Below the pieces are notes generated by a model, which saw only the letters and a program-made list of their open reading frames with translations, was not told the origin of the DNA and made no database searches. Below are positions 12,740-30,931 of a stretch of DNA of 64,000 bases, piece after piece (the stretch's first letter is position 1; each line of letters starts with the position of its first letter). Made by a program: the position numbers and the translations under genes. The stretch lies in NCBI RefSeq assembly GCF_000740895.1, contig NC_025261.1, positions 1,302,001 through 1,366,000 of the forward strand, in the 5' to 3' direction. This DNA is from Theileria orientalis strain Shintoku. Taxonomy: Eukaryota; Apicomplexa; Aconoidasida; Piroplasmida; Theileriidae.

Positions 12740-13972
12740 ATGAACTTAAAAAGTTATAAAAATATGATTAATCTCAATGGGTATAACACAACTAAAAAAA
12801 TACCTTCATACACAGCTTCTGTTCTCAAAAGTAAGTTAACACACGATAAACATGACTCGGGCATTTACGTATTAAATGACGAAGATATTAAATCAATAAA
12901 GGATATTTGTATTAAAAACATTCCATTTTGGAACAATTTAGATTATAATGATATCGAGATACAATTGAAATCTAATTCAGTTTCAAATATAGTTTTCTTT
13001 GTGAATTTAATTTGCGAGAACAATGAAATATATCCGAATCGTACTGTTATATTGAAGAAGCGTACCTCTTATAGCAATGTTATTTATGACAGGGAACTTC
13101 AACTTAATGTAGCTGAACTACTGGGTGAGAATAACCTAGGACCACGTGTGATTTGTAGATGTTCAGACTATACGATTCAGGAATTTGTGGAAGGAACCAC
13201 TTTGAAGAACAGCTCATTTCAAAATTTATCGGTTATCACAAGTCTTGCCTCGACTTTGGCCAAATTTCACAGGAAGGGTACTGAGATATCACTTCCTGAG
13301 TGGGATAGAACACCCTTTGTTCTTAGACATATTAACAAGTGGACTGAACCGGTAGAACGTATAATTAAGAAACACAACTTGGATTTCGATTTTAACGAGT
13401 TACAATCTTCGTTTGAACTGTACAAAACTTTACTAAACAATCACATCAAAACGTCAAACTCAGTAGCCAACTCTGTTCTGTTTTGTCATAATGATTTATT
13501 TTATAAAAACATTTTACAGTTTCAACAAGGAACATTTTTGATAGATTTTGACTACTCGGGTTATAATTATGTTGGTTGGGATGTTTCATGTTTTATTATT
13601 AAGGCACATCTTGATTACAACGAAACTGAACAGTATTATTTTTGTAATAAATCATATGATATACCTTATAATTTAAGGTGCATTTTTGTTTCTATTTATT
13701 TATCTGAACTTTTAAATAAGAATGTGTTACCATCAGAGAATGCAGTAAAGGAATTCCTAGATAGTTTAGAAACACACTCTCTAGGAGTTCACATTTTTTG
13801 GATGTATTGGGGACTTATTATGTAAGTTTTTGCTGTCATATTAGTTATAAATTTAATATATTTTAGGTTTGATAAACCAAATTCGGAATCGTCAATGTAT
13901 TTCGATGCCTATGAATACGCCAAGTTTCATTACAATTATTTTAAATCACAATTAAACAAATTAAGTCATTAA
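12740..13972 (+). CDS. choline/ethanolamine kinase-like protein, array copy 1
   Basis: Exons 12740-13821 and 13867-13972 give 395 residues. The protein kinase-like fold of choline/ethanolamine kinases is shown by the Brenner motif CHNDLFYKNIL, with the catalytic Asp, and by IDFDYSGYNYVGWD, which holds the metal-binding Asp. These enzymes phosphorylate choline or ethanolamine with ATP, the first step of the Kennedy pathway to PC and PE. The first ~50 residues (MNLKSYKNMINLNGYNTTKK...) are unique to this copy; from IKDICIKNIPFWNN onward it is almost identical to copy 2. After GWD it has VSCFIIKAHLDYNE and NKSYDIPYNL, a segment shared only with copy 2. The single intron follows an IM dipeptide in phase 2, as in every copy but copy 6, where the residue is Leu. 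Substrate choice cannot be read from the sequence. Confidence 0.85.
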
Positions 13973-14425
13973 AACATAATTTGTTTGTAATTATATTGAC
14001 TTTTAAGTTGATATTTTTACTGCATCTCAATTTGATGAACTGAGGTAAATGGCTCAGTTAGTGTATGAAACTCTGTAATTAGTTGTCGGACACAACTTCA
14101 TAAAATAGAAGATATTACACACATATAATATATGAGAATTGTATTGAGAATGTTATAAATGTGTCTCCAATGGACATGACTTATGGTGTACTGGTGTAAA
14201 ATAGGCCCATTTATTCACTTTACATTTATAATAAATACACAATGATTTGAGAGTAAATATCGCATAACATTTTATTAATTATATTTTGATCACATATTTG
14301 TGTTATAACATTTTACAATAACATTATCAATATCATTAATATAATCAATATTTTTGTATATCTAATCAATAGATTACATCAATAACTAATAATAATATTG
14401 TATTATAGTTTTTGAGTAACTAAAC
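13973..14425. repeat. repeated ~450-bp spacer unit, copy a
   Basis: This block follows kinase copy 1 and precedes copy 2. Nearly the same sequence recurs at 18593-19048 and 20255-20707, and a shortened form at 15631-15735. It holds the 3' UTR of one gene and the promoter and 5' UTR of the next. It includes gtaaatggctcagttagtgt and a short hairpin (tagttgt, five-base loop, acaact). Because it travels with the coding unit, it shows that whole gene-plus-spacer units were duplicated. Confidence 0.9.
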
Positions 14426-15630
14426 ATGTTTGATGTAAATGAAGTTGATAATTGTTCATCTTCAAACAGAGTCCCAGTTAAATACACTAAATACTCACAT
14501 AACCATATTGAAAACAAACTATATTGTTTGAGTGACCATGATAGTAAATTAATAAAGGATATTTGTATTAAAAACATTCCATTTTGGAACAATTTAGATT
14601 ATAATGATATCGAGATACAATTGAAATCTAATTCAGTTTCAAATATAGTTTTCTTTGTGAATTTAATTTGCGAGAACAATGAAATATATCCGAATCGTAC
14701 TGTTATATTGAAGAAGCGTACCTCTTATAGCAATGTTATTTATGACAGGGAACTTCAACTTAATGTAGCTGAACTACTGGGTGAGAATAACCTAGGACCA
14801 CGTGTGATTTGTAGATGTTCAGACTATACGATTCAGGAATTTGTGGAAGGAACCACTTTGAAGAACAGCTCATTTCAAAATTTATCGGTTATCACAAGTC
14901 TTGCCTCGACTTTGGCCAAATTTCACAGGAAGGGTACTGAGATATCACTTCCTGAGTGGGATAGAACACCCTTTGTTCTTAGACATATTAACAAGTGGAC
15001 TGAACCGGTAGAACGTATAATTAAGAAACACAAGTTGGATTTCGATTTTAACGAGTTACAATCTTCGTTTGAACTGTACAAAACTTTACTAAACAATCAC
15101 ATCAAAACGTCAAACTCAGTAGCCAACTCTGTTCTGTTTTGTCATAATGATTTATTTTATAAAAACATTTTACAGTTTCAACAAGGAACATTTTTGATAG
15201 ATTTTGACTACTCGGGTTATAATTATGTTGGTTGGGATGTTTCATGTTTTATTATTAAGGCACATCTTGATTACAACGAAACTGAACAGTATCATTTTTG
15301 TAATAAATCATATGATATACCTTATAATTTAAGGTGCATTTTTGTTTCTATTTATTTATCTGAACTGTTAAACAATAACGTGTTACCATCAGAGAATGTT
15401 GTAAAGGAATTCCTAGATAGTTTAGAAACACACTCTCTAGGAGTTCACATTTTTTGGACCTACTGGAGTATTCTTATGTATGTTTATAGTCATCTATATT
15501 ATCAACTTAAACATAATATTTCAGGTTTGATAAGCCCAAATCTGAATACTCTAAATATTTCGATGCCTATGAATACGCCAAGTTTCATTACAATTATTTT
15601 AAATCACAATTAAACAAATTAAGTCATTAA
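14426..15630 (+). CDS. choline/ethanolamine kinase-like protein, array copy 2
   Basis: Exons 14426-15477 and 15525-15630 give 385 residues. The N-terminus (MFDVNEVDNCSSSNRVPVKY...) is shared with copies 3 and 4, not with copy 1. The core, including CHNDLFYKNIL and IDFDYSGYNYVGWD, and the segment after GWD are almost identical to copy 1; one visible change is KHKLDFD for KHNLDFD. The intron here has no early stop, so a naive reading continues through it to 15613; the conserved donor (gtatgt) and acceptor (ttcag) and the conserved exon 2 (FDKPKSEYSKYFDAYEYAKF) show that the spliced form is the real one. Confidence 0.85.
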
Positions 15631-15735
15631 AACATAATTTGTTTGTACTTATGTTGATTTTTAAGTTGATATTTTTATTTCATCTCAATTTGATGAATTG
15701 AGGTAAATGGCTCAGTTAGTGTATGAAATTCAGTA
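15631..15735. repeat. shortened copy of the kinase-array spacer unit
   Basis: About 105 bp match the first part of the 450-bp spacer (compare 18593-18698). The match stops at about 15735 and gives way to the 3' end of the SAHH gene. This is a clear breakpoint between array sequence and the interrupting SAHH block. Confidence 0.8.
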
Positions 15736-15757
15736 TTGTACTCGCATATAGTGCTAC

Positions 15758-17395
15758 TCAGTATGTGTACCGTTGGTGCTTGTATGGGCCCTCCTTATTT
15801 ACTCCCAGGAACTCGCACTGGCTGTCAGACAGGACCGTAAGCTTAGCGTTTAGCGCCTCCAGGTGGAATCTTGCTATCGTCTCGTCAATTTTCTTTGGGA
15901 TTTGGTGAACTGTGTTTTCCAACTTTCCTCTGTTTTCGTATAGTTGCAGCAGTGCGAAGAACTGCGTCGTGAAGGACATTGACATCACCAGAGATGGGTG
16001 TCCGTTAGCGCATCCTAGATTATACAGGCTTCCGTGAGATAGAATTATTACGCCTTTGTTTAAGTCCTTGAACCTGTAGTAGTGTGCATTATTATTCAAC
16101 TCAATAATTTCCAGGTTCGGGTCTTTAACTATTTCGGGCATGAATATTTCTCTGTCTCCCTGGCCTATGTTTCCCAGGATTGCTCCGTCCTTCATCTTCC
16201 TCACGTGATGCAGTCTAATGACCTCTATTCCTCCGGTAGCCGTTACGAATATATCTGCTGTTTCAAGTGTGTCCTCCAGGAGTACGACTGGGTACCCGTC
16301 CATAACACTCTGCATTGCGCACAGGGGGTCTGCTTCGCACACTTTCACTATTGCTCCTGCTCCTCTGAATCCCATACACACCCCCTTACCGACGTGCCCG
16401 TAACCAATAACCACCACTTCTCTTCCTCCTACAAGTACCCCCTCGGCTCCTCTATGAATACCATCAATGGCACTGTACCTTGCTCCGTAGTTGTTGTCGA
16501 ACTTGGACTTAGAAATAACGTCGTTTGTCGAGTAAATTGGAAAGTGAAGTCTATTCATTTTTTCAAACTTTCTGAATTGCCACACACCGCTAGTTGTTTC
16601 CTCTGACAGACCCACTATTCTCTTGATGAGGTTGTTATAGAAGTGTGGGTTTTTTGGCACTGTGTAGTTCAAAAACTTAAAGAGATAAATCTTATCTCTG
16701 TCGGATTCTTCCACCTCCGACAGGTCGTACAACTTTCCCGTTGCGTTGTATCTATCTTCCAACTCCTTCCCGTATAGAATCATGGTGTACATTGAACATC
16801 CATCGTCCACCAGGAGCAGTGGTTTGTCAGTTTCCGGCCAGTTTATTGACTGGTACTTACACCACAAATACTCTTCCATGGACATATCTACACATATTTA
16901 TTAGTCGAGTGTGTGCATATCTAGTTTATGTATTCTACAATTCCAATAATTGTCACTGTGTGATTTAATATTCGATTATTATCTATTATTGTAAATACAT
17001 GAAGATTCCCCTAGCTACTTAAAAATTGATGTTGTGTATTAACTATCGTTCATACTTTTTTGACCGAACGTTGCTATTTTTGGATTGAACTGCTTAATAC
17101 ATGTGAAGACGGACATGTCGTTAGAAGTGTATGGGTTTGAGGAAGCCCATCTCACTTGAGCTCCCAGCCTATAGAGCGTATATGCCAAATTGATGGTCTC
17201 CTGGGTCATGTGCAGGCATCCTGTAATTTGTACTCCTTTGAAGGGCTGCTTATCTTCGTAGTGCTTTATCACGTTCAACAGGCCTGGGCACTCCTTCATT
17301 CTGAATTCGTACATGAACATTCCGGAGTCGCCGTAGTCCTTGCCCTTGTAGTAACTAGTGGTCCAAGGGGCCAAATCATCCCAAAGTTCGTGCAT
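15758..17395 (-). CDS. S-adenosylhomocysteine hydrolase (adenosylhomocysteinase)
   Basis: Two exons on the minus strand, 17395-17056 and 16887-15758, give 489 residues, close to the usual apicomplexan length. The enzyme splits S-adenosylhomocysteine to adenosine and homocysteine and so keeps methyltransferases active. Seen motifs: GCLHMTQETI and RWASSNPYTSND in the substrate domain, DDGCS, the catalytic pair SKSKFDNNYG, the NAD-binding GYGHVGKG with CEADP, HPSLVMSMSFT, and the C-terminal tail ending KHQRYTY. The usual DDGGD reads DDGCS, and the region that follows (YTMILYGKELEDRYNATGK) is the loop insert typical of the long SAHH forms of plants, Plasmodium and many bacteria. It lies inside the kinase array, in reverse orientation. 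Confidence 0.93.
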
Positions 17396-17698
17396 ATTTA
17401 AAAATTAGAACTATAAATATTTCATTAATACAAAAATCAGAATTGATGTGGTAAACTGTGTTAATATTGACTCTGAATTAAGATGATTAAAGAATATGGA
17501 ATTAATATACTATACACAAATCAGTGTTGTATTAAAATTATTGGTGTTCAGATAACGTCACCTTTTAAATTATAAAAGGCAGTTATTGCCATCGCCACAT
17601 GTCTAAAACAGCGTCATATTCTATTTGACGAATGGGGTACATATATAATAAAAGCTACTGTTTTGAGCAATTAATCCTTGTATATTATCATCATGTAA
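17396..17698. other. intergenic region
   Basis: An AT-rich spacer of about 300 bp between the start of SAHH and the 3' end of the small minus-strand gene. I see no array repeat or RNA gene in it; it should hold the SAHH promoter. Confidence 0.5.
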
Positions 17699-17989
17699 TT
17701 ACTTCTTATTCATTTGTTTCCCTGTCCTTTTCGTTCTGGAATATTCAGAGGATTTTTTGGGCGAAAGGGTCGACATGAAGTTTTTATATTCAGTCTTCTC
17801 CTCCGGATTCAACCTCTGCGATTCCTGTTTTATGCTTTTCAACTCCTTTATAATTTCAGATAAATCCGTAAATAGAATATTATCATCATTTACTCTAACC
17901 AGTTCAATTTGCTCCTCCTCATTCCCGTTATTGTCAACTTCCCCTGAAAAAGTTTGATCTTTCGCCAATACGCTATCTAACCAATCCAT
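17699..17989 (-). CDS. small hydrophilic protein of unknown function
   Basis: A minus-strand frame of 96 residues from the ATG at 17987-17989 (MDWLDSVLAKDQTF). The frame extends ~10 codons upstream without another ATG, so a spliced first exon is possible. The protein is acidic in the middle and ends in a very basic tail (SRTKRTGKQMNKK). Residues ~50-75 (LSEIIKELKSIKQESQRL) should form a helix or coiled coil. No family recognised. It is transcribed in the same direction as SAHH and sits with it inside the kinase array. Confidence 0.5.
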   Translation of the reverse strand: MDWLDSVLAKDQTFSGEVDNNGNEEEQIELVRVNDDNILFTDLSEIIKELKSIKQESQRLNPEEKTEYKNFMSTLSPKKSSEYSRTKRTGKQMNKK

Positions 17990-18289
17990 TTGCTTTGTTA
18001 TTTGAATAGAATCTTCCAATGTGTACGACTTATTTTGAGAACTGAATCACTATGGGTCAACTGAGAAAACTCGGTACATATATTAATTTAACATTAGATT
18101 CCGGTTCAGAATACTTAACATTTAATAAAGGTAGACTTATAAACTACTACAAATGGATTTGTAGGTAACTATGTATATGTATATATCCTCCCTACAAAAT
18201 AGTAATACATATAGACAAAACACACCAATTTAACATGTTAATAATAAAACATAAACATTAATATTTTATGTTTAATAAAAGATTGATTA

Positions 18290-18592
18290 AATTTAATTTG
18301 CGAGAACAATGAAATATATCCGAATCGTACTGTTATATTGAAGAAGCGTACCTCTTATAGCAATGTTATTTATGACAGGGAACTTCAACTTAATGTAGCT
18401 GAACTACTGGGTGAGAATAACCTAGGACCACGTGTGATTTGTAGATGTTCAGACTATACGATTCAGGAATTTGTGGAAGGAACCACTTTGAAGAACAGCT
18501 CATTTCAGAATTTATCGGTTATCACAAGTCTTGCCTCTACTTAGAAATTTTATTACAATTATTTTAAATCACAATTAAACAAATTAAGTCAT
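18290..18592 (+). pseudogene. deleted relic of a choline kinase-like gene
   Basis: From about 18290 the sequence matches the array genes from codon NLICENNE to SLAST (about 250 bp). It then jumps at 18542-18547 straight to the tail of exon 2 (YNYFKSQLNKLSH) and the 3' spacer. The start, N-terminus, both catalytic motifs (CHNDL, IDFD) and the intron are missing, and TAG follows SLAST. The remaining sequence is almost unchanged, so the deletion is recent or the fragment is still being converted by its neighbours. Confidence 0.9.
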
Positions 18593-19048
18593 TAAAACAT
18601 AATTTGTTTGTACTTATGTTGATTTTTAAGTTGATATTTTTACTGCATCTCGATTTGATGAACTGAGGTAAATGGCTCAGTTAGTGTATGAAACTCAGTA
18701 ATTAGTTGTCGGACACAACTACATAAAATTGAAGATATTACACACATATAATATATGAGAATTGTATTGAGAATGTTATAAATGTGTCTCCAATGGACAT
18801 GACTTATGGTGTACTGGTGTAAAATAGGCCCATTTATTCACTTTACATTTATAATAAATACACAATGATTTGAGAGTAAATATCGCATAACATTTTATTA
18901 ATTATATTTTGATCACATATTTGTGTTATAACATTTTACAATAACATTATCAATATCATTAATATAATCAATATTTTAGTATATCTAATCAATAGATTAC
19001 ATAAATAACTAATAATAATATTGTATTATAGTTTTTGAGTAACTAAAC
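18593..19048. repeat. repeated ~450-bp spacer unit, copy b
   Basis: This copy joins the relic to kinase copy 3. It is very close to 20255-20707 and slightly less close to 13973-14425. It contains the perfect 7-bp stem tagttgt/acaacta with a cggac loop, which may be a 3' UTR structure. Confidence 0.9.
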
Positions 19049-20254
19049 ATGTTTGATGTAAATGAAGTTGATAATTGTTCATCTTCAAACAGAGTCCCAG
19101 TTAAATACACTAAATACTCACATAACCATATTGAAAACAAACTATATTGTTTGAGCGACCATGATAGTAAATTAATAAAGGATATTTGTATTAAAAACAT
19201 TCCATTTTGGAACAATTTAGATTATAATGATATCGAGATACAATTGAAATCTAATTCAGTTTCAAATATAGTTTTCTTTGTGAATTTGATTTGCGAGAAC
19301 AATGAAATATATCCGAATCGTACTGTTATATTGAAGAAGCGTACCTCTTATAGCAATGTTATTTATGACAGGGAACTTCAACTTAATGTAGCTGAACTAC
19401 TGGGTGAGAATAACCTAGGACCACGTGTGATTTGTAGATGTTCAGACTATACGATTCAGGAATTTGTGGAAGGAACCACTTTGAAGAACAGCTCATTTCA
19501 AAATTTATCGGTTATCACAAGTCTTGCCTCGACTTTGGCCAAATTTCACAGGAAGGGTACTGAGATATCACTTCCTGAGTGGGATAGAACACCCTTTGTT
19601 CTTAGACATATTAACAAGTGGACTGAACCGGTAGAACGTATAATTAAGAAACACAACTTGGATTTCGATTTTAACGAGTTACAATCTTCGTTTGAACTGT
19701 ACAAAACTTTACTAAACAATCACATCAAAACGTCAAACTCAGTAGCCAACTCTGTTCTGTTTTGTCATAATGATTTATTTTATAAAAACATTTTACAGTT
19801 TCAACAAGGAACATTTTTGATAGATTTTGACTACTCGGGTTATAATTATGTTGGATGGGATATTGCTACATTTTTTTGTAAAATATGCATTTTATACAAT
19901 TTAAACGAATATCCAATTTTCTTTTACGACAAGACATTGGAGACATCGGACGAATTTAAATCCATTTTTGTTTCAATTTATTTATCTGAACTTTTAAATA
20001 AGAATGTGTTACCATCAGAGAATGCAGTAAAGGAATTCCTAGATAGTTTAGAAACACACTCTCTGGGAGTTTATCTTTTTTGGATGTATTGGGGACTTAT
20101 TATGTAAGTTTTTGCTGTCATATTAGTTATAAATTTAATATATTTTAGGTTTGATAAACCAAATTCGGAATCGTCAATGTATTTCGATGCTTATCAATTT
20201 TCCAAATGTCAATACAACCTTCTTAAGTCCCAATTAAACAAATTAAGTCATTAA
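19049..20254 (+). CDS. choline/ethanolamine kinase-like protein, array copy 3
   Basis: Exons 19049-20103 and 20149-20254 give 386 residues. It shares the N-terminus with copies 2 and 4 and the catalytic core (CHNDLFYKNIL, IDFDYSGYNYVGWD) with copies 1, 2 and 6. After GWD it switches to IATFFCKICILYNLNEYPIF followed by YDKTLETSDEFKS, a segment type also seen in copies 4 and 6 but not 1 and 2. Exon 2 starts like copy 1 (FDKPNSESSMYFDAY) and then differs (QFSKCQYNLLKSQ). All catalytic residues are present. Confidence 0.85.
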
Positions 20255-20707
20255 AACATAATTTGTTTGTAATTATATTGATTTTTAAGTTGATATTTTT
20301 ACTGCATCTCGATTTGATGAACTGAGGTAAATGGCTCAGTTAGTGTATGAAACTCAGTAATTAGTTGTCGGACACAACTACATAAAATTGAAGATATTAC
20401 ACACATATAATATATGAGAATTGTATTGAGAATGTTATAAATGTGTCTCCAATGGACATGACTTATGGTGTACTGGTGTAAAATAGGCCCATTTATTCAC
20501 TTTACATTTATAATAAATACACAATGATTTGAGAGTAAATATCGCATAACGTTTTATTAATTATATTTTGATCACATATTTGTGTTATAACATTTTACAA
20601 TAACATTATCAATATCATTAATATAATCAATATTGTTGTATATCTAATCAATAGATTACATCAATAACTAATAATAATATTGTATTATAGTTTTTGAGTA
20701 ACTAAAC
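20255..20707. repeat. repeated ~450-bp spacer unit, copy c
   Basis: This copy lies between kinase copies 3 and 4 and is nearly identical to 18593-19048. It is the last full copy of the unit; the spacers after copies 4 and 5 are unrelated. Confidence 0.9.
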
Positions 20708-21916
20708 ATGTTTGATGTAAATGAAGTTGATAATTGTTCATCTTCAAACAGAGTCCCAGTTAAATACACTAAATACTCACATAACCATATTGAAAACAAA
20801 CTATATTGTTTGAACGACCATGATAGTAAATTAATAAAGGATATTTGTATTAAAAACATTCCATTTTGGAACAATTTAGATTATAAAGGCATCAAAATAG
20901 AGATTGCACCTAATTCAGTTTCAAATTTAGTTTTCTTCGTGAATTTAATTTGCGAGAACAATGAAATATATCCGAATCGTACTGTTATATTGAAGAAGCG
21001 TACCTCTTATAGCAATGTTATTTATGACAGGGAACTTCAACTTAATGTAGCTGAACTACTGGGTGAGAATAACCTAGGACCACGTGTGATTTGTAGATGT
21101 TCAGACTATACGATTCAGGAATTTGTGGAAGGAACCACTTTGAAGAACAGCTCATTTCAGAATTTATCGGTTATCACAAGTCTTGCCTCGACTTTGGCCA
21201 AATTTCACAGGAAGGGTACTGAGATATCACTTCCTGAGTGGGATAGAACACCCTTTGTTCTTAGACATATTAACAAGTGGACTGAACCGGTAGAACGTAT
21301 AATTAAGAAACACAACTTGGATTTCGATTTTAACGAGTTACAATCTTCGTTTGAACTGTACAAAACTTTACTAAACAATCACATCAAAACGTCAAACTCA
21401 GTAGCCAACTCTGTTCTGTTTTGTCATAATGACCTATATTCTGAAAATATTATTAATTTTCAACAAGGAATATTTTTGATAGACTTTGATTTTTCAGGGT
21501 TCAATTACGTTGGATGGGATATTTCTACATTTTTTTGTAAAATGGGTTTCCTATATGACGTAACCACATTTCCTTATTTTGTTTATGACAAGACATTGGA
21601 GCCATCGGACGAATTTAAATCCATTTTTGTTTCAATTTATTTATCTGAACTTTTAAATAAGAATGTGTTACCATCAGAGAATGTAGTAAAGGAATTCTTA
21701 GATAGTTTGGATGTACACAGATTAGGTGTTCAATTATACTGGACTTATTGGGGAATAATAATGTAAGTTGCAGTAAATTTGAAATTATTATTTAGGAGTG
21801 ATAGGCCATCGAATGAATTGGCGATAAAATCCAATTTTTCCTCACAGTCCAAAGTTCACTTAGAAGTGTTTAATGCTTACTACAATAAGATACAAAGAAA
21901 ACAAACCAAACTTTAA
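20708..21916 (+). CDS. choline/ethanolamine kinase-like protein, array copy 4
   Basis: Exons 20708-21762 and 21796-21916 give 391 residues. The N-terminus and most of the core are as in copy 3. Two stretches differ: residues ~60-70 (KGIKIEIAPNSVSNLVFF in place of NDIEIQLKSNSVSNIVFF), and everything from CHNDLYSENIINF onward (IDFDFSGFNYVGWDISTFF, FCKMGFLYDVTTFPYFVYD). Exon 2 is also distinct (SDRPSNELAIKSNFSSQSK, ending RKQTKL). Several of the changed residues agree with copy 5 (DFDFSGFNYVGW), so this copy bridges the young AT-rich copies and the older one. Catalytic residues are intact. Confidence 0.85.
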
Positions 21917-22503
21917 ATTCCTTAATATTTTGGATCCATAATATATATTGTAGTAATCTCATTAGACCAGCACATTTATTTGAATACGAAGCTACATTAA
22001 TACTTGTTCAACACACTAAACTTGCAAGTCTACAAAAAATTCCAAGACCAAAATAGAGATGTGTTTAGATTAAAATTATATTTATAGCCATGTGAGAGTG
22101 GGGACTAAGGGATTGATCTATTCAAAAAATAACCTATTTTAACCAAATTGAATCATTTACACATCGAATTTATAAGAAAAAATTTAATAAGCAAAACATG
22201 AATTAAACTAATTATTAATCCATGGAAATCGTACAAGGAGTGGAAGCTTTATTATTTTGGCAACCTTCCCCATTACAAATTTAAATGATTTATAATGAAC
22301 GAGTTCATTTGATCCATTCGTTAACTTATCAAAACACCGCCCTTTAAGCTTATTGTACTGTTTTATAGAATATTTTTATAGTTTTATCGACGTTCGGCCT
22401 TGTTTCAATTTTATTACCTGATCAACATTATCATATAACAAATTTTGAGTTAGACTCAACCAGTACATATACGTAAAACTGACCATTTTTTGTAAATTAC
22501 ACA
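21917..22503. other. intergenic region between kinase copies 4 and 5
   Basis: About 590 bp of AT-rich sequence unlike the 450-bp array spacer. No gene or RNA seen. It marks the end of the recently duplicated part of the array. Confidence 0.55.
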
Positions 22504-23653
22504 ATGGGGACCCTACCTGACTACGTTTTCGGGAAGAAGGACAGCGACGAAGTGAAGGAAGTTTGCATGAAGCACGTTCCATTCTGGGATAGACTCACAC
22601 ACGATGATATGGTGGCGGAGTTTATCTCATCAGCAGTAACAAACAGAGTCTTTACGGTCACGTTGAACCCGGAACTTAAGAAGAAATACATGCTTAACAA
22701 AGTCATTATTAAGAAGACGACATCGTTTAACTCGCTGATGGGAGATATTGATAAGCAGTACGAGATAGTTAAGTTCATGAGCGATAACCAGTGCGGACCG
22801 AAGCTGATAGGACGTTTCGGAGTATACACACTACAAGTGTGGGTCGAGGGCACCATGATGTCGAACGACTCGTTCCAAAACCTGTCGGTGCTGGCAGGAC
22901 TGGCGACATCCCTTAGCAAACTCCACAAGAAGTGCACAGAAATCTCGCCTGATCACTGGGACAGAACACCATTCTACGTACCGTTGATGTCGAAGTGGGA
23001 GCAGCACCTGGAGAGAGTGATAGCAAAACTCAACTTAGACTTCGACCACAATGACCTGAAGCGAGACTACAAGGTAGTCGTGGACATTCTCGAGGACCAC
23101 GTCAAGAGCTCGAACTCGATGGCAAACACAATTATGTTTTGCCACAACGACCTGTTCTCGCTGAACATACTGGACACACAGCACGGAGTGTACCTGATCG
23201 ACTTCGACTTCTCAGGCTTCAACTACGTAGGATGGGAAATTGCGAACTTGTTTAGAGAAATAACGATCGTATACGACACGGGAATGCCGCCCTACTTCAT
23301 GAGCGATAAAAACCTTGAACTCTCATACGAGTTTCAATCGTTCTTCCTCTCAGTGTACCTCTCGCAACTGCTAGATAAAAATGTGTTGCCGTCGGACAAG
23401 ATGGTAAAGGAATTCATAGACAGTTTGGAAATACACTACTTGATGGTGGACGTGTTCTGGGTCTTCTGGGGAATCATCATGTAAGTTGCAAGCGTATAGA
23501 TCATATATGAGATATTCACAATTGTGCAGGAAGGACAGATCGCGCGAAGAGTTGAACAAGCCGGTTCAGTTCGAAGCGTATGCCGCATTACATAACAATT
23601 TGCTGAAAGCGCAGCTAAAAAAGCTGAGAGACCAGAAAGTTGTTAAGTATTGA
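22504..23653 (+). CDS. choline/ethanolamine kinase-like protein, array copy 5 (divergent)
   Basis: Exons 22504-23480 and 23530-23653 give 366 residues. The same domain order and intron position are kept, with CHNDLFSLNIL and IDFDFSGFNYVGW, but the protein is clearly diverged from the others along its whole length and its codons are richer in G and C. It has a short N-terminus (MGTLPDYVFGKKDSDEVK). The residue after GW is Glu (GWEIANLF) where the other copies and most choline kinases have Asp. It shows no long tract of identity with the other copies. It is the best candidate for the conserved, ancestral enzyme of the locus. Confidence 0.88.
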
Positions 23654-24167
23654 GAGCTTTAATATTTAATATTTACACATTTGTCTAAGTCACAGAATTT
23701 AAGTCAGCAATAGAGCGCTGTATGTAAATAATATACTATATAGAAACGATATGATTTGGGAGCCTGAAAATATTGAATAGGCGTGCTGAATGGGTGACCT
23801 CGTCAAGCGGATGGGGCGCCGTTTTCACTCATAGCAGCCCTTGTCACTTCTAAGCCTTGATACTAGGCTGGACTTGACCCACTTTGGGCGTTTACACTGT
23901 AATTTAAATCAATTTGGATCAAAAATATTAGTCTACAAGGCTTGGAATATACAATACACGTATTCAGAATGTGAAAATATCGTGACTTCTATATAAATTT
24001 GGATGTATTATATATATTTGTGTTACTCGTTCGTTCTGCTGGAAAGTGTTGATGTTTTTTTTGTTTTAATATTTAATAGATGTTAACTACTGTAAACTAC
24101 CTCAACAACGTTTCACCTTTTTAATTTGAGCATTTCAATCACATTGTTATAGTTAACTAGCTACAAT
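23654..24167. other. intergenic region between kinase copies 5 and 6
   Basis: AT-rich except for a GC-rich island at about 23775-23895, listed separately as a candidate ncRNA. The rest shows no open frame of note. Confidence 0.55.
23775..23895. ncRNA. candidate structured non-coding RNA
   Basis: A GC-rich island in AT-rich spacer DNA with no coding frame. Several helices can be drawn. tgggt (23791-23795) plus tcaag (23803-23807) pair with cttgaccca (23873-23881), leaving a seven-base bulge. agcct (23853-23857) pairs with aggct (23865-23869) around a seven-base loop. Between them is atggggcgccg, also GC-rich. A dense island of this type is how small stable RNAs usually look in AT-biased apicomplexan genomes. 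I could not match it to U snRNAs, RNase P, SRP RNA or a tRNA. The strand is not determined. Confidence 0.4.
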
Positions 24168-25331
24168 ATGAACTCAGAAAGGGAAACGCAAACAGCCGCC
24201 GTAAATGACGATAGTAGGTTAATAATGGATATTTGTATTAAAAATGTCCCGTTTTGGAACACCTTAAGTTATAATGACATGGAGTTAGAAAACAGCCATA
24301 TGGCTTTTAATAATGACGTTTTCATTTTAAAATTAAAGTGTAAAAATAAAAATGACTTTCCTTTTAACACCCTAATAGTGAAAAGGAGAACTCAATTCAG
24401 TGATTTGATGTTTGATTCTGAGTTTCAACATCACATAGCTGTACTCCTGGGTGAGAATAACCTAGGACCACGTGTGATTTGTAGATGTTCAGACTATACG
24501 ATTCAGGAATATGTGGAAGGAACCACTTTGAAGAACAGCTCATTTCAGAATTTATCGGTTATCACAAGTCTTGCCTCGACTTTGGCCAAATTTCACAGGA
24601 AGGGTACTGAGATATCACTTCCTGAGTGGGATAGAACACCCTTTGTTCTTAGACATATTAACAAGTGGACTGAACCGGTAGAACGTATAATTAAGAAACA
24701 CAACTTGGATTTCGATTTTAACGAGTTACAATCTTCGTTTGAACTGTACAAAACTTTACTAAACAATCACATCAAAACGTCAAACTCAGTAGCCAACTCT
24801 GTTCTGTTTTGTCATAATGATTTATTTTATAAAAACATTTTACAGTTTCAACAAGGAACATTTTTGATAGATTTTGACTACTCGGGTTATAATTATGTTG
24901 GATGGGATATTGCCAATTTTATATATAGAAGTTGTTTTGTATTCAATTTGCCTGAGTATCCTTACTTTTCTTACGACAAGACATTGGAGCCATCGGACGA
25001 ATTTAAATCCATTTTTGTTTCTATTTATTTATCTGAACTTTTAAATAAGAATGTGTTACCATCAGAGAATGCAGTAAAGGAATTCCTGGATAGTGTGCAA
25101 GTACATTTTCTCGGAGTTAATATATTCTGGATGTATTGGAGTATTGTCTTGTAAGTTTTTATCCAAATTTTAGATATATTATAAACTTATTGATAAAAAT
25201 ATTATAGATACGACAGAACATTTTTTCCGCCTACCTTGTCGGTCTGCCCACATGATAATGCCATAGTAGAATACGCAAATCTTAAAGCAACATTACGTGA
25301 ACTACGTGATAAAAAGTTAATCAGCAGTTAA
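24168..25331 (+). CDS. choline/ethanolamine kinase-like protein, array copy 6 (mosaic)
   Basis: Exons 24168-25150 and 25208-25331 give 368 residues. The N-terminal ~90 residues (MNSERETQTAAVNDDSR...) are diverged from all other copies. From about 24446 to 24912 the DNA is almost identical to copies 1-3 (LGENNLGPRVICRCSDYT to IDFDYSGYNYVGWD). It then changes to IANFIYRSCFVFNLPEYPYF, and joins the YDKTLEPSDEFKS segment shared with copies 3 and 4. Exon 2 is unique (YDRTFFPPTLSVCPHDN). The sharp edges of the shared block point to gene conversion into an older copy. Catalytic residues are intact. Confidence 0.87.
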
Positions 25332-25847: not shown

Positions 25848-28800
25848 ATGTTGTTTGATAGTTCTATGTGTAAGTTAATTTTAGGATCGTTATGCTATTT
25901 GACCACTATTGGGACTATTTTCATATCTGTTAATGTTTGTGAGTGACTTAGTCATGGTCTAATTACTTAAGGTTGTAAGTTGATGTTGTTTTGAATGTAG
26001 TTACTGTTACTTGGATTTTTTATTAACATAGGGATTATTAAAGTATAAATGAATTTACACATATAATACCTTTAAATTACAAAGAAAACCCAGGATAATT
26101 GAAGTTTTTTAGTGTCTATATTAGGAAAATCTTAAACTTTTGATTTTTATAAGTTTTTTTAACACATATACTATAAAGAAATTTCTATAGCATATTAAGG
26201 CTTTAATATTGTTAACTTTTAATTTATATCAAAATCATAAAAGTTTAAATATATAATTTATTGTTAATCATGGAAGATTCAGGTTCTATCAAAGTTTTAA
26301 TTAAAGATCTTGGTTCGGAACATTATGCTTCAAAAGTTGGTGAGGAACCACTTACGGACTATCCTATGTTTGTCAAGCTTACTTTTAGAGAAGACAGTTG
26401 GCTTCCATTTCTTAATTTTTCTATTATAGCTAATGGTACAACATACAATTATAATCCTGAACATAGAAGTTTGGTTTATAAAAATGATTTAATTTTTTTT
26501 GTGGACATATTCGTTTTTAGAGACAATGTTAATAAACCGCTTTTAGTTGGAGTTAACAATGGAACTAACTACTATTACTTCAGAATAAGTGAATCGGAAG
26601 GTCATGACACTCAACTCGAACTGGATCACCCTTGTAATTGTTCACTTACAACATTTTTTGATATGTTACTAGATGAACATGAAAAAACAAACAGGACAAT
26701 TACATTTAAAATAGATAATAAAACCGGATATGACGGTGTAGATTTTACTAATGAAACAAAGTATGGATTTTCCACTTTTAAACATGTGCTTAAAAATGAC
26801 TATAAACTTCATTTTATTGTTGCTTTAAAAGGAAGAAATGAAATTTTTGATTACGAAACCCTTGAAAGTATTCAAAATAAAAATTTTAGAGAGATGACTG
26901 CGTATTACAGTAATAAATCCAATACTGAAATTCCTTTATTAATTGAATTTTTTAATGGGAGTAAGAGATGTTACTATCATAAAGAAAACATCCATCAAAA
27001 ATATTGGACCGAGATGGATATTAAGGATGAAAACGATCTAGAAAAAGAACTAAACCATCTTGAAGCAAAGTTATTTTACTCTATTTTAGTTTCAATAGAC
27101 CGAAAGAGTGATTATATTAGGGGAGTAATAATAGATGATATACACTCTGAGGGTTTGAATGATCCTAAAAACGAACAAATCAAAGTTGATAAAAATGAAA
27201 AATACTCAATTTCAAATTATGTGTGTTATGAACATGATTTAAGTGTGTATAATACAATAAATTTTGGGCACAAAAATTTTGAATATGGTGATTATTTCAA
27301 ATCATTATTTATTAACATATCTAATATAACAATAGAAATTGCTGAAGAAATTTTAGACTTTATTCTATTTGTTGAACCAACCCCTAAGTTATATGTATGG
27401 TTTTACGAAAAATTAAAGAAAGAAGATGAGCAAAATTTGCCATTGATGATACAATATTACAATAAAACTTACATTCCTAAAAGTAGAAATGAGTATTTCG
27501 ATAAATGGGTAGTTCTTAAATCTCTATCTGATTCTACACAAAATGAAAAAATGTATTTTAATACAATTATACAAAAGTCCGAAAGTTTTAATTTTATGTT
27601 AAAAAACTTTGAATCTAACAAATTTAAACATGAGTTAGACATAGTTAATGTTATGTTAAATGAAATCGATCTAAATCATAAAATGGTTAATACCAGTATG
27701 ACCAGCGAGTACGGTATACCCAGACCTGCTTATTTGAATACTACATATGACACGAGTAGGATACATGTTGAATATAATTATTATCAAGATTTATTTATTA
27801 ACTGTACTCATACTACAAAAAATGGGTTCACGATTGGAAAACAATATTATACCAAACAAATATACGATCAAAGAAGTATTAGAGAAAAAAATAACCCTGT
27901 TCGTAAACATAATAAAAGCAAGGATCAGAAAGGTGAATTGAATGTTAACTCTAGGGATGTTAGCATATATTATTTTAAATATGACCGTGATAGTGAATAC
28001 CCTTTAATGGTTGAATTTAAACTATATGATAGCCTCCACGAATATTATGTACTTAGGTGTAATTTTTTTAACAAGGCTGAATATGAGTTAAGAAAACTCC
28101 CATTCTGTGATAAAATTAAAGGCAACGATCTTTGTACTATACTCACACATCAGAATTTCATAATTCACAATGTTATAAGCATAAAATTGGATAAACGGTC
28201 ATCATACGCATGTTGTGACAAGAAAACCCATAACAAATATTTAGAGCTTGTTCCAATCAAAATTTGGGGATTTGAATGTTGTCGGTTTAAAGATGAAAAA
28301 AATAGTAAAACTACAAACTTTCCTTTTATACATGTGGCTGGATACCGTACAAATTCATCACATGGCTATATTCCATTTAAACATAATCTAACAACGTTTT
28401 TAACCAATAAAAATATGGGAACCCAAGACAATAAATTAGAACAGATAAAAATAAAAGGATTCCAAATAAATAATAACGATATCACATTAAATGGTACAGG
28501 ATTAGATAGACGAGCTGTTGTTAAAGCCCCTTATGTGTTTGTATATTTTTACGGCAATGATCCTAGACCCCTATTAGTGTATTTTAACAATAAAGTTTAT
28601 GTTCCCGAGGGACTATCCAATTACCCAAGTGTATGGAATCCTGTTAATAGTCAGAAAAAATTCACAATCAGAAGTCAACAACATATTAATTTGTTATACC
28701 AGAATATTTTGGACAAGTTAAATGTGACAGTAGGATTTTTAAATACGGTCAACCTTTATCAACATAACAAGGATGATAAGAATCACACTTATGATGTTCA

Positions 28801-30931
28801 CACATACAATAACCATCATGTAAAGATAAATGTAAAACCACAAAACTTTTCATTTTCATCAACCAGTTTTTCTACTAGCTGTTACAAGAAACTTACACAT
28901 ACCCCAAATGGTATGAATACAAAAACTGGAAGTGACCACGATGGATTTAGGTTAGGTAACATAGAATATAATGGAAATGGACTAACAGGCACACTGGATT
29001 ACAGTAACTGCTTTCATAAATGGCACCCTTTAATTAGTGTCAGTGTATACTACTATAAACATGACAATGATTACAAGGATCCTCTTTTAGTTGAGCTAAA
29101 GTTTAAGGTCATTATGACTGATAGGTTATTTGACTATTACTATAAGCTAAAGACTTCTGAAGGAAACCAGTTAAAATGGGAAATGGATAATAACGCTAAA
29201 AAGTTTGTAAATGGAGGCAATGACAATCTGGCAAAATACTTAAATGGTATTAGGTCTCAGCTAAAAAAGATCTTGAAAATAGAAATAAACAGACAGGCCC
29301 GATATGATTTGATGTTGTCGGAAAAAGCCGGTAAAGCTGATACATTTCAAAAAGAGAATCATTATCAAATAGAGGTTGAAAGGTGTACCGACTGTCCAAC
29401 GTTATCTAACCAAGATTACAAGACCTTTGTTCACAAAATCTCAAACATAAATGAAAGTTTCGATTACAATTCTATAGGAGGCATAGTATTTACTTTACCC
29501 GGTACTGATGAAAAGAACATTGAAATTTCACTTGAAGATTCAAAGACTTTGAATCCTATTGGCATTATTCATTATGATCAATGCATGGGAGATGTTCATG
29601 TGTATTTTTCTAAAAAGTCGGATTCACCTGCTGGAGTACCAATTCTTATTCGCCTTAATGATCAGTGGTACACTCCTAATAAAATTGAGAACTACTATAC
29701 AAAATGGTCTCGTGTGGATAAATTAGAAGTTCTTCCTGGACTTTATGAGTTTAAAGATCAGTCAATGATTAAGAAATATTTTGAAGAAGTAAATAAAACG
29801 CCAAATCAAGAGAATGAATTTACAGTTTCTAGTTTAAAATTTCCTAAACCTGATTCTACCGAAGGCAATAAAATTTCTGCTGATGACGTGAAATTGTATA
29901 TTGATGTGGCCAAAAATCCTTCTCACAATGACATGGAGGTACATTATAATCATGATTCTGAAATAGCTCCTGTTAATAACATGATGCCCTCTGTCCAGAT
30001 AGAAATACCTTCTTCCGACTCAAAAAAACAAGTTGACATAGAAACACCTAATGTCGATTTTGATATGTATCCTGCTGATGATTTGAAAATATTTTCTGTT
30101 AATTACCCTCAAATACCTCCTGATAATTTGGAAATGACTTATGTTAATAATTTAGAAATATCTCCTGCTAACGATTTGGAAATGCCGTATTCAAATGAAG
30201 TCCAGGTACCTCCTATTTACGATCTGAAAATGCCTTCCATTGATGATTTCGAAACCTCTCCCGTTAATGATCCCAAAATACCTTACGTTCGTGATCTGAA
30301 GATACCTTATACTCATCATTTGGCAGCGGCATCTATCGATTTAAAACAAACTCATGTTGATATAGAAAGACCTGATAAATCCATAAAAAAACCCATTGTT
30401 AACATAGATATGACTCCTGTTAATGTATTCGAAGTAGCTTCTTTTAAAGACGTAAATAAATCTGATGTTGACACAGAAACCCCTCCTGATGATGATTTGG
30501 AAATATTTCCCGTTAAATACCCTCAAACAACTTATTTATGTGATCCTGAACTAGAAAGTTTAGATGATAAATTTCGAGAAGCATTAGAAGACGATTCTAA
30601 TATTCAGGGAGACCAACCAAAAGCATTTGTAGGTTCAAAAATCCTTGACTTCACACAGGACCATAATCCCGGTTTTAGATCCCGTGAAGTTTCAGAAAAA
30701 GTTTTAAACCCTAAAAATATGAATCCTAAAGAACTTTCTTTCGATCAACCTCCTAACCCTCTTGCTTCAACTGGACTAGCATCTACTTCAGCTGATTCTG
30801 ATAACTCTTATTTAGGTCCTATATTAGGAGGGACTTTCGGCTTGCTTGTAACTCTAGGTCTTTTTACGTTTATGTTATTTAAATATTTTAGGAGAGTTCG
30901 ACTCCGGAACATGATTCCACAGCTTTACTAA
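25848..30931 (+). CDS. giant FAINT/DUF529-like surface or secreted protein with C-terminal membrane anchor
   Basis: The main exon has an ATG at 26270 and stops at 30931 (1553 residues). Seven blocks of the FAINT (DUF529) type recur: an aromatic strand, a short charged turn, PLLVEL-type strand, then YY/W. Examples are near residues 80 (VDIFVFRDNVNKPLLVGV), 209, 373 (KLYVWFYEKL), 564 (VSIYYFKYDRD), 757 (VFVYFYGNDPRPLLVYF), 925 (VSVYYYKHDND) and 1108 (DVHVYFSKKSD). Residues ~1240-1425 are Asp/Pro-rich short repeats (DLEMPY, DLEISP types). A membrane helix (GPILGGTFGLLVTLGLFTF) and a basic tail end the protein. The main exon has no signal peptide, but a candidate exon at 25848-25938 (MLFDSSMCKLILGSLCYLTT...) ends in a consensus GTGAGT donor and joins in frame to an acceptor at 26276 or 26282. 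FAINT proteins are exported to the host cell or surface in Theileria. Confidence 0.8.

What the first reader, a model, noticed from the sequence alone, without database searches (positions are those of the whole stretch)
12740..25331. Six-gene choline/ethanolamine kinase-like array with swapped cassettes around a homogenised catalytic core
Seen: six intact genes and one relic share CHNDL and IDFD motifs and one conserved intron. The core is nearly identical at the DNA level in copies 1-4 and 6, yet N-termini and the segment after GWD come in different types that are reassorted: copies 2-4 share an N-terminus, copies 1-2 share one post-GWD segment, copies 3, 4 and 6 share another. Known: one or two such kinases serve the Kennedy pathway in related parasites. 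Inference: gene conversion keeps the core uniform while edges diversify, as in an adaptive or multi-substrate family. This is the most unusual system in the window.
Basis: partly seen in the sequence, partly recalled or inferred. Interest (0 to 1): 0.78.

Follow-up and report, generated by a model that had tools for sequence, protein, structure and literature searches.

The report
Kinase array: uniform core, swapped pockets
A cattle blood parasite carries a row of choline-kinase-like genes whose middles are kept nearly identical by copying between neighbours, while the pieces that would hold the substrate stay different and, in most copies, have lost the residue that grips choline, which suggests a set of enzymes for other substrates.

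Summary
The observation largely holds. In this Theileria orientalis (Shintoku) window, six intact choline/ethanolamine-kinase-like genes (c1-c6) and one truncated relic lie at 12740-25331. In c1-c4 and c6 the core has pS 0.00-0.03, while segments of different type reach 0.85. A second tandem pair on another chromosome repeats this: 521 identical bases between edges at pS 0.87 and 0.96. T. annulata and, more weakly, T. parva proteins show the same design. Cores cluster by genome; several post-GW segments pair between genomes. So gene conversion homogenises the core while pocket types persist. The variable segments hold known choline-pocket residues. The glutamate described as invariant in choline kinases (PMC4702295) is Lys in 16, Arg in 2, Ile in 2 and Glu in 5 of 25 array proteins; the catalytic Asp is kept in 24 of 25. 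Best reading: small-molecule kinases with a shared scaffold and preserved, diversified acceptor pockets, mostly no longer tuned to choline. Substrates are unknown and activity untested.

The parts
12740..13972 (+). c1: exon 1 12740-13821, intron 13822-13866, exon 2 13867-13972; 395 aa; own N-terminus, post-GWD type shared with c2, Lys at the choline-Glu site
   Evidence: splice search; translation; residue table
14426..15630 (+). c2: intron 15478-15524; 385 aa; N-terminus shared with c3/c4, post-GWD type shared with c1; Lys at the choline-Glu site
   Evidence: P0021
18287..18599 (+). relic: 253 bases (LICENN to SLAST) joined to the last part of exon 2; no HNDL, IDFD or intron
19049..20254 (+). 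c3: intron 20104-20148; 386 aa (P0019); Lys278 at the choline-Glu site (codon 19880-19882)
   Evidence: AlphaFold model
20708..21916 (+). c4: intron 21763-21795; 391 aa (P0018); distinct HNDL-to-GW stretch; Lys at the choline-Glu site
22504..23653 (+). c5: intron 23481-23529; 366 aa (P0001); diverged throughout, keeps the choline-binding Glu; by eye in the alignment resembles TA_P0004 and TP_P0006 in its N-terminal, pocket and C-terminal segments
   Evidence: model
24168..25331 (+). c6: intron 25151-25207; 368 aa; own N-terminus, pocket and C-terminus around the shared core; Arg at the choline-Glu site
13118..13582 (+). homogenised core of c1 (LLGENN to GWD; limits counted from the c3 numbering)
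14774..15238 (+). homogenised core of c2 (same limits)
19397..19861 (+). homogenised core of c3
21056..21432 (+). homogenised core of c4 (ends at HNDL)
24444..24913 (+). homogenised core of c6
19859..19957 (+). pocket cassette of c3 (helix after GWD and following loop, residues 271-303); equivalents near 13580-13675 (c1), 15236-15331 (c2), 21518-21616 (c4), 23236-23334 (c5), 24906-25004 (c6)
   Evidence: coordinates of the equivalents counted by hand

Best explanation
A Theileria-lineage array of choline/ethanolamine-kinase-like enzymes in mosaic concerted evolution. Shown: in T. orientalis the scaffold from about LLGENN to HNDL/GWD is overwritten between paralogues by ectopic gene conversion, in this array and in a second tandem pair on another chromosome; protein data show the same homogenised scaffold in T. 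annulata and, more weakly, in T. parva. Shown: the helix and loop after GW[D/E] keep distinct types, several of which match between genomes; for some copies the loop with the Ser121 equivalent and the C-terminal tail do so too. Shown: these segments carry positions that hold choline in solved choline kinases, and the choline-contacting glutamate is Lys, Arg or Ile in 20 of 25 array proteins, while the catalytic Asp and the Mg-binding Asp are kept in 24 and 25 of 25. Inferred: selection against conversion tracts that run into the pocket sets the boundaries, and most members phosphorylate a small alcohol other than choline or ethanolamine (neutral or anionic), with c5 and its relatives nearest to the ancestral specificity.
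Against: T. parva cores are only partly homogenised (mean 0.89; two changes on the core tree). The fitted end of the uniform block is residue 271 and 273 in the two T. orientalis loci but 243 in T. annulata and T. parva, so the boundary is not one place. T. orientalis pockets as a group are not interleaved with those of the other two species (one change, 53/83), so pocket persistence is shown only between T. annulata and T. parva and between T. orientalis genomes. The core rejects P0004+P0006 only at p 0.037, and the core tests of P0011+P0010, P0014+P0013 and c4+P0022 could not run. The pocket tree has 41 columns and long branches, and the clades were named after the trees were seen. Divergence alone can block conversion, so selection on the boundary is not proved. 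In the C. elegans enzyme, Glu-to-Ala raised the Km for choline only threefold, so loss of this Glu need not end choline kinase activity. One T. parva copy has lost the catalytic Asp and another both pocket Trp, so some copies may be decaying. No expression or activity data were found.
Confidence: 0.68

Rival explanations
1. Passive barrier: tandem copies first drifted apart at their edges, and conversion now works only where identity remains high. The pockets carry no adaptive meaning and the enzymes are redundant choline/ethanolamine kinases.
For: A neutral model of this kind, with divergence suppressing conversion, is discussed in PMC3728101 (passages); edges of different type are highly diverged at silent sites; Glu-to-Ala has a mild effect in C. 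elegans; T. annulata and T. parva blocks end elsewhere than the T. orientalis ones.
Against: A low-divergence island (29 codons, pS 0.05-0.32) lies between the two diverged 3' blocks. The fitted 3' boundary is nearly the same (271 and 273) in two T. orientalis loci. Three of four same-type pockets are nearly as conserved between species as the cores. The Glu site is changed to Lys/Arg in 18 of 20 non-Glu rows, while its immediate neighbours have ten and six residue types.
Confidence: 0.2
2. Partly pseudo-enzymes: most members no longer act on a small alcohol and serve as regulatory or structural partners of the few canonical enzymes; the homogenised scaffold keeps them compatible, for example as dimers.
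For: TP_P0009 lacks the catalytic Asp, TP_P0025 has Gly in IDFD, TP_P0013 lacks both pocket Trp; IDFE is IDFD or IDFG in 25 of 25 array proteins.
Against: The catalytic Asp is kept in 24 of 25 array proteins, the Asn311 equivalent and the Mg-binding Asp in 25 of 25.
Confidence: 0.1
3. Assembly or annotation artefact of one locus.
For: Highly similar tandem copies are easily misassembled; two gene models of another T. orientalis genome hold the core twice.
Against: N-termini, pockets, introns and tails differ between copies; the design recurs on another chromosome and in T. annulata and T. parva records.
Confidence: 0.02

Closest known systems
Eukaryotic choline kinases (P. knowlesi 3c5i, P. 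falciparum 6yxs/3fi8, Cryptosporidium 3mes, human CKalpha/beta)
   Different: Choline-binding Glu replaced in 20 of 25, IDFE is IDFD (IDFG in one), Asn345 equivalent kept in 12 of 25, Tyr440 equivalent variable
Theileria choline/ethanolamine kinase family proteins of T. annulata and T. parva (database annotation)
   Same: Same family and the same uniform-core, varied-pocket design
   Different: Named choline or choline/ethanolamine kinase in the search listings; those names say nothing of the mosaic or the lost Glu
Paralogue pairs with islands of divergence under gene conversion (copepod GOT1; opsins and RH factor as cited in PMC3728101)
   Same: Converted background with divergent islands, read by some as selection against conversion (passages)
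   Different: Here up to five converted copies, recurring in several genomes and two loci, with islands on an enzyme's acceptor pocket

Membership tests
Choline/ethanolamine kinase family (Pfam PF01633) | Profile match above the curated cut-off | tested here: met
   c2-c6 and both C1 genes score 145-180 bits against cut-off 29; c1 146 bits
Choline/ethanolamine kinase family (Pfam PF01633) | Choline kinase fold | tested here: met
Functional choline kinase | Brenner motif HND...N and Mg-binding Asp | tested here: met
   6 of 6 window genes; of 25 array proteins the catalytic Asp in 24, Asn311 equivalent and Mg-binding Asp in 25
Functional choline kinase | Glu at the end of the choline kinase motif, binding the charged substrate | tested here: not met
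   c1-c4 Lys, c6 Arg; met only in c5 among the six; role from PMC4364537 and PMC4702295
Functional choline kinase | DFE glutamate | tested here: not met
   IDFD in 6 of 6 window genes; IDFE kept in both C1 genes
Functional choline kinase | ATP-dependent phosphorylation of choline or ethanolamine | not testable with these tools
   needs purified protein
Gene family in concerted evolution | Paralogues in a genome closer to each other than to orthologues, with silent sites homogenised | tested here: met
   core only, and weaker in T. parva; silent sites only for T. orientalis Shintoku, because only proteins were held for the others
Antigenic-variation family (var/VESA type) | Secreted or surface product with expression switching | not tested
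   no signal-peptide or expression test was run

The most novel reading that the evidence does not exclude
A cassette-type metabolic enzyme array: each genome keeps a set of old acceptor pockets, repeatedly re-mounted on a scaffold refreshed by gene conversion, so that Theileria makes several small-molecule kinases for head groups or metabolites other than choline and ethanolamine, with Lys/Arg in the pocket selecting a neutral or anionic alcohol.
Probability: 0.35. Interest if true: 0.75.

Novelty: new variant of a known kind. Interest (0 to 1): 0.58.

Why it matters
The proteins are filed as choline kinases, yet most lack the residue described as invariant in that family, so pathway maps and drug-target ideas built on 'several choline kinases' in Theileria may be wrong. 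The array offers natural sets of enzymes with one scaffold and different pockets, which makes two questions testable: what the extra kinases phosphorylate, and whether selection on a pocket can hold back gene conversion at a defined boundary.

Tried and rejected
Assembly artefact: rejected, because the design recurs on another chromosome and in other species' records. c5 as a conversion partner: no run longer than chance on third positions; on all positions two of five pairs give short runs at p 0.014 and 0.019, which I do not take as conversion. RNA gene or tRNA: none at Rfam gathering scores or by ARAGORN over 8000-30000; a GC-rich stretch at 23750-23905 finds only itself in this genome, gives no Rfam match at E <= 1 in 23650-24170 and folds no better than shuffles (z -0.86). 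Pocket types shared between T. orientalis and T. annulata/T. parva: not resolved. Kennedy pathway completeness: matches to cytidylyltransferase (6) and CDP-alcohol phosphotransferase (2) families are present, but genes were not modelled. Literature: searches over an open-licence PMC library listed no paper on this array's mosaic. I searched the text of PMC9323827, PMC9610513, PMC5921998, PMC5854367 and PMC10434005 for 'choline' and found 0 occurrences in each; PMC3505731 has one sentence on gene number in T. equi. The library lacks most subscription papers, and the original T. parva, T. annulata and T. orientalis genome papers (recalled, not seen) may list the family.
Full report
WHAT IS THERE. 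The window is a stretch of contig C2 of a 9.0-Mb genome; database names of the encoded proteins give Theileria orientalis strain Shintoku. Six choline/ethanolamine-kinase-like genes (c1-c6) stand head to tail on the plus strand, 12740-25331, each with one intron at the same place. A relic at 18287-18599 consists of 253 bases (LICENN to SLAST) joined to the last part of exon 2. The array is split by a minus-strand S-adenosylhomocysteine hydrolase gene (15758-17404) and an ORF without Pfam match (17699-18046). The genome scan for PF01633 gave 11 matches: six in this array plus the relic, a tandem pair at C1:1194555-1197207, and two neighbouring pieces, probably exons of one gene, at C1:2132603-2133642. 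Self-comparison fits tandem duplication of c2, c3 and c4 with their flanks (93-94% over 1.6-1.8 kb).

IDENTITY ALONG THE GENES. Among c1-c4 and c6, codon-alignment columns 151-250 have pS 0.00-0.03. Columns 351-400 have 0.31-0.85 and columns 1-50 0.00-0.78, near zero where an N-terminus is shared. By segment, the core has pS 0.00-0.03, the pocket segment 0.42-0.83 (c1-c2: 0.00), a 29-codon island after it 0.05-0.32, and the C-terminus 0.27-0.80. A permutation test on runs of identical polymorphic sites (2000 shuffles) gave p <= 0.0035 for 10 of 10 pairs of these five copies, also with third positions alone. c5 showed nothing on third positions (p 0.48-0.67); on all positions two of its five pairs gave p 0.014 and 0.019 with runs of six sites. 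The segment types are reassorted: c2-c4 share an N-terminus, c1-c2 a post-GWD segment, and c3, c4 and c6 only the distal part of theirs.

THE SAME DESIGN ELSEWHERE. The C1 pair shares only one 35-base nucleotide hit with the array region, yet has 521 bases at 100% identity covering the same part of the protein. Its core has no silent change in 102.7 sites, against pS 0.87 before and 0.96 after it. Third-position GC of C1B is 0.41, 0.68 and 0.41 in 5' edge, core and 3' edge, and of C1A 0.47, 0.68 and 0.76, which fits C1A as donor (inference). In T. annulata (eight protein clusters, seemingly not all from one assembly) and T. parva (six proteins), within-genome identity is 0.99 and 0.89 over the core and 0.48 and 0.39 over the pocket. 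In all four sets the 15 residues after GW have 0.42-0.49. A maximum-likelihood two-breakpoint fit puts the end of the uniform block at residue 271 (array), 273 (C1 pair), 243 (T. annulata) and 243 (T. parva), in c3 numbering; T. annulata and T. parva also vary just after HNDL, as c4 does. Residue 244 matches by position the LicA pocket residue Val178, two residues after the catalytic Asp176 (residue numbers; the match is my alignment).

DISCORDANT TREES. On 28 rows (25 array proteins and three C1-type outgroups; LG+G4) the core tree puts the eight T. annulata rows in one clade (98/97). The T. parva rows are not one clade (two changes), and T. orientalis is weak (59/96). On the pocket tree T. 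annulata needs 6 changes and T. parva 5, with TA_P0011+TP_P0010 and TA_P0014+TP_P0013 at 99/95, and c1+c2+P0024 at 99/95; T. orientalis stays one group (53/83). AU tests: 9 asked, 6 run; the core tests of P0011+P0010, P0014+P0013 and c4+P0022 could not run. The pocket rejects a T. annulata clade (0.0007), a T. parva clade (4e-20) and a c1-c4,c6 clade (2e-63). The core rejects c6+P0020 (1.7e-7) and c1+c2+P0024 (0.0007), and P0004+P0006 only at 0.037. The clades were chosen after seeing the trees, and the pocket has 41 columns and long branches. Of four same-type pockets compared between T. annulata and T. parva, three are 0.70-0.82 identical and one (P0007 with P0009) 0.55, against 0.44 for all such pairs. 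N-terminal and C-terminal types pair between species for some copies only: for the same four pairs identity is 0.54-0.67 (mean of all pairs 0.52) and 0.38-0.85 (mean 0.44). Pocket and tail do not always travel together: TA_P0007's pocket is nearest TP_P0026, its C-terminus TP_P0025.

READING. Conversion of the scaffold is shown for T. orientalis Shintoku at silent sites and inferred from proteins for the others. Persistence of pocket types across splits is shown between T. annulata and T. parva and between T. orientalis genomes; whether the Lys types of T. orientalis and of the other two species share one origin is unresolved. That selection fixes the boundaries is inferred from the boundary shared by the two T. 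orientalis loci, the low-divergence island between variable blocks, the conservation of types and the placement on the pocket. A change of acceptor is inferred. The leading rival is that divergence passively blocks conversion and the enzymes are redundant; the mild effect of Glu loss in C. elegans, the different block ends in T. annulata and T. parva, and decayed T. parva copies count for it. Islands of divergence under conversion are known (PMC3728101, abstract and passages), and the family is annotated in databases, so the novelty is a variant: a multi-copy enzyme array with pocket cassettes. An increased count of such genes in T. equi is in print (PMC3505731, passages).

Noticed in passing
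L009 2750-3270 and 4449-4969 (C1:1194.5-1197.2 kb): Second tandem choline-kinase-like pair with a 521-base identical tract and diverged edges, in an unrelated place of the genome.
   Followed up: yes
window 15758-17404, minus strand: Two-exon S-adenosylhomocysteine hydrolase gene inside the kinase array.
   Followed up: partly
window 17699-18046, minus strand: 115-aa ORF inside the array with no Pfam match.
   Followed up: no
window 22504-23653: c5 has third-position GC of 0.66 against 0.30-0.35 in its five neighbours.
   Followed up: partly
P0020 and P0022 (another T. orientalis genome): Predicted proteins that hold the conserved core twice; real partial duplications or gene-model errors.
   Followed up: no
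P0009 (T. parva): Array protein with HNV instead of HND at the catalytic Asp.
   Followed up: partly
window 23750-23905: GC-rich stretch between c5 and c6 that finds only itself in this genome, without Rfam match or unusual folding.
   Followed up: partly
window 26270-30928, plus strand: 1553-aa ORF just downstream with no Pfam match and, by eye, a hydrophobic stretch near its C-terminus.
   Followed up: partly
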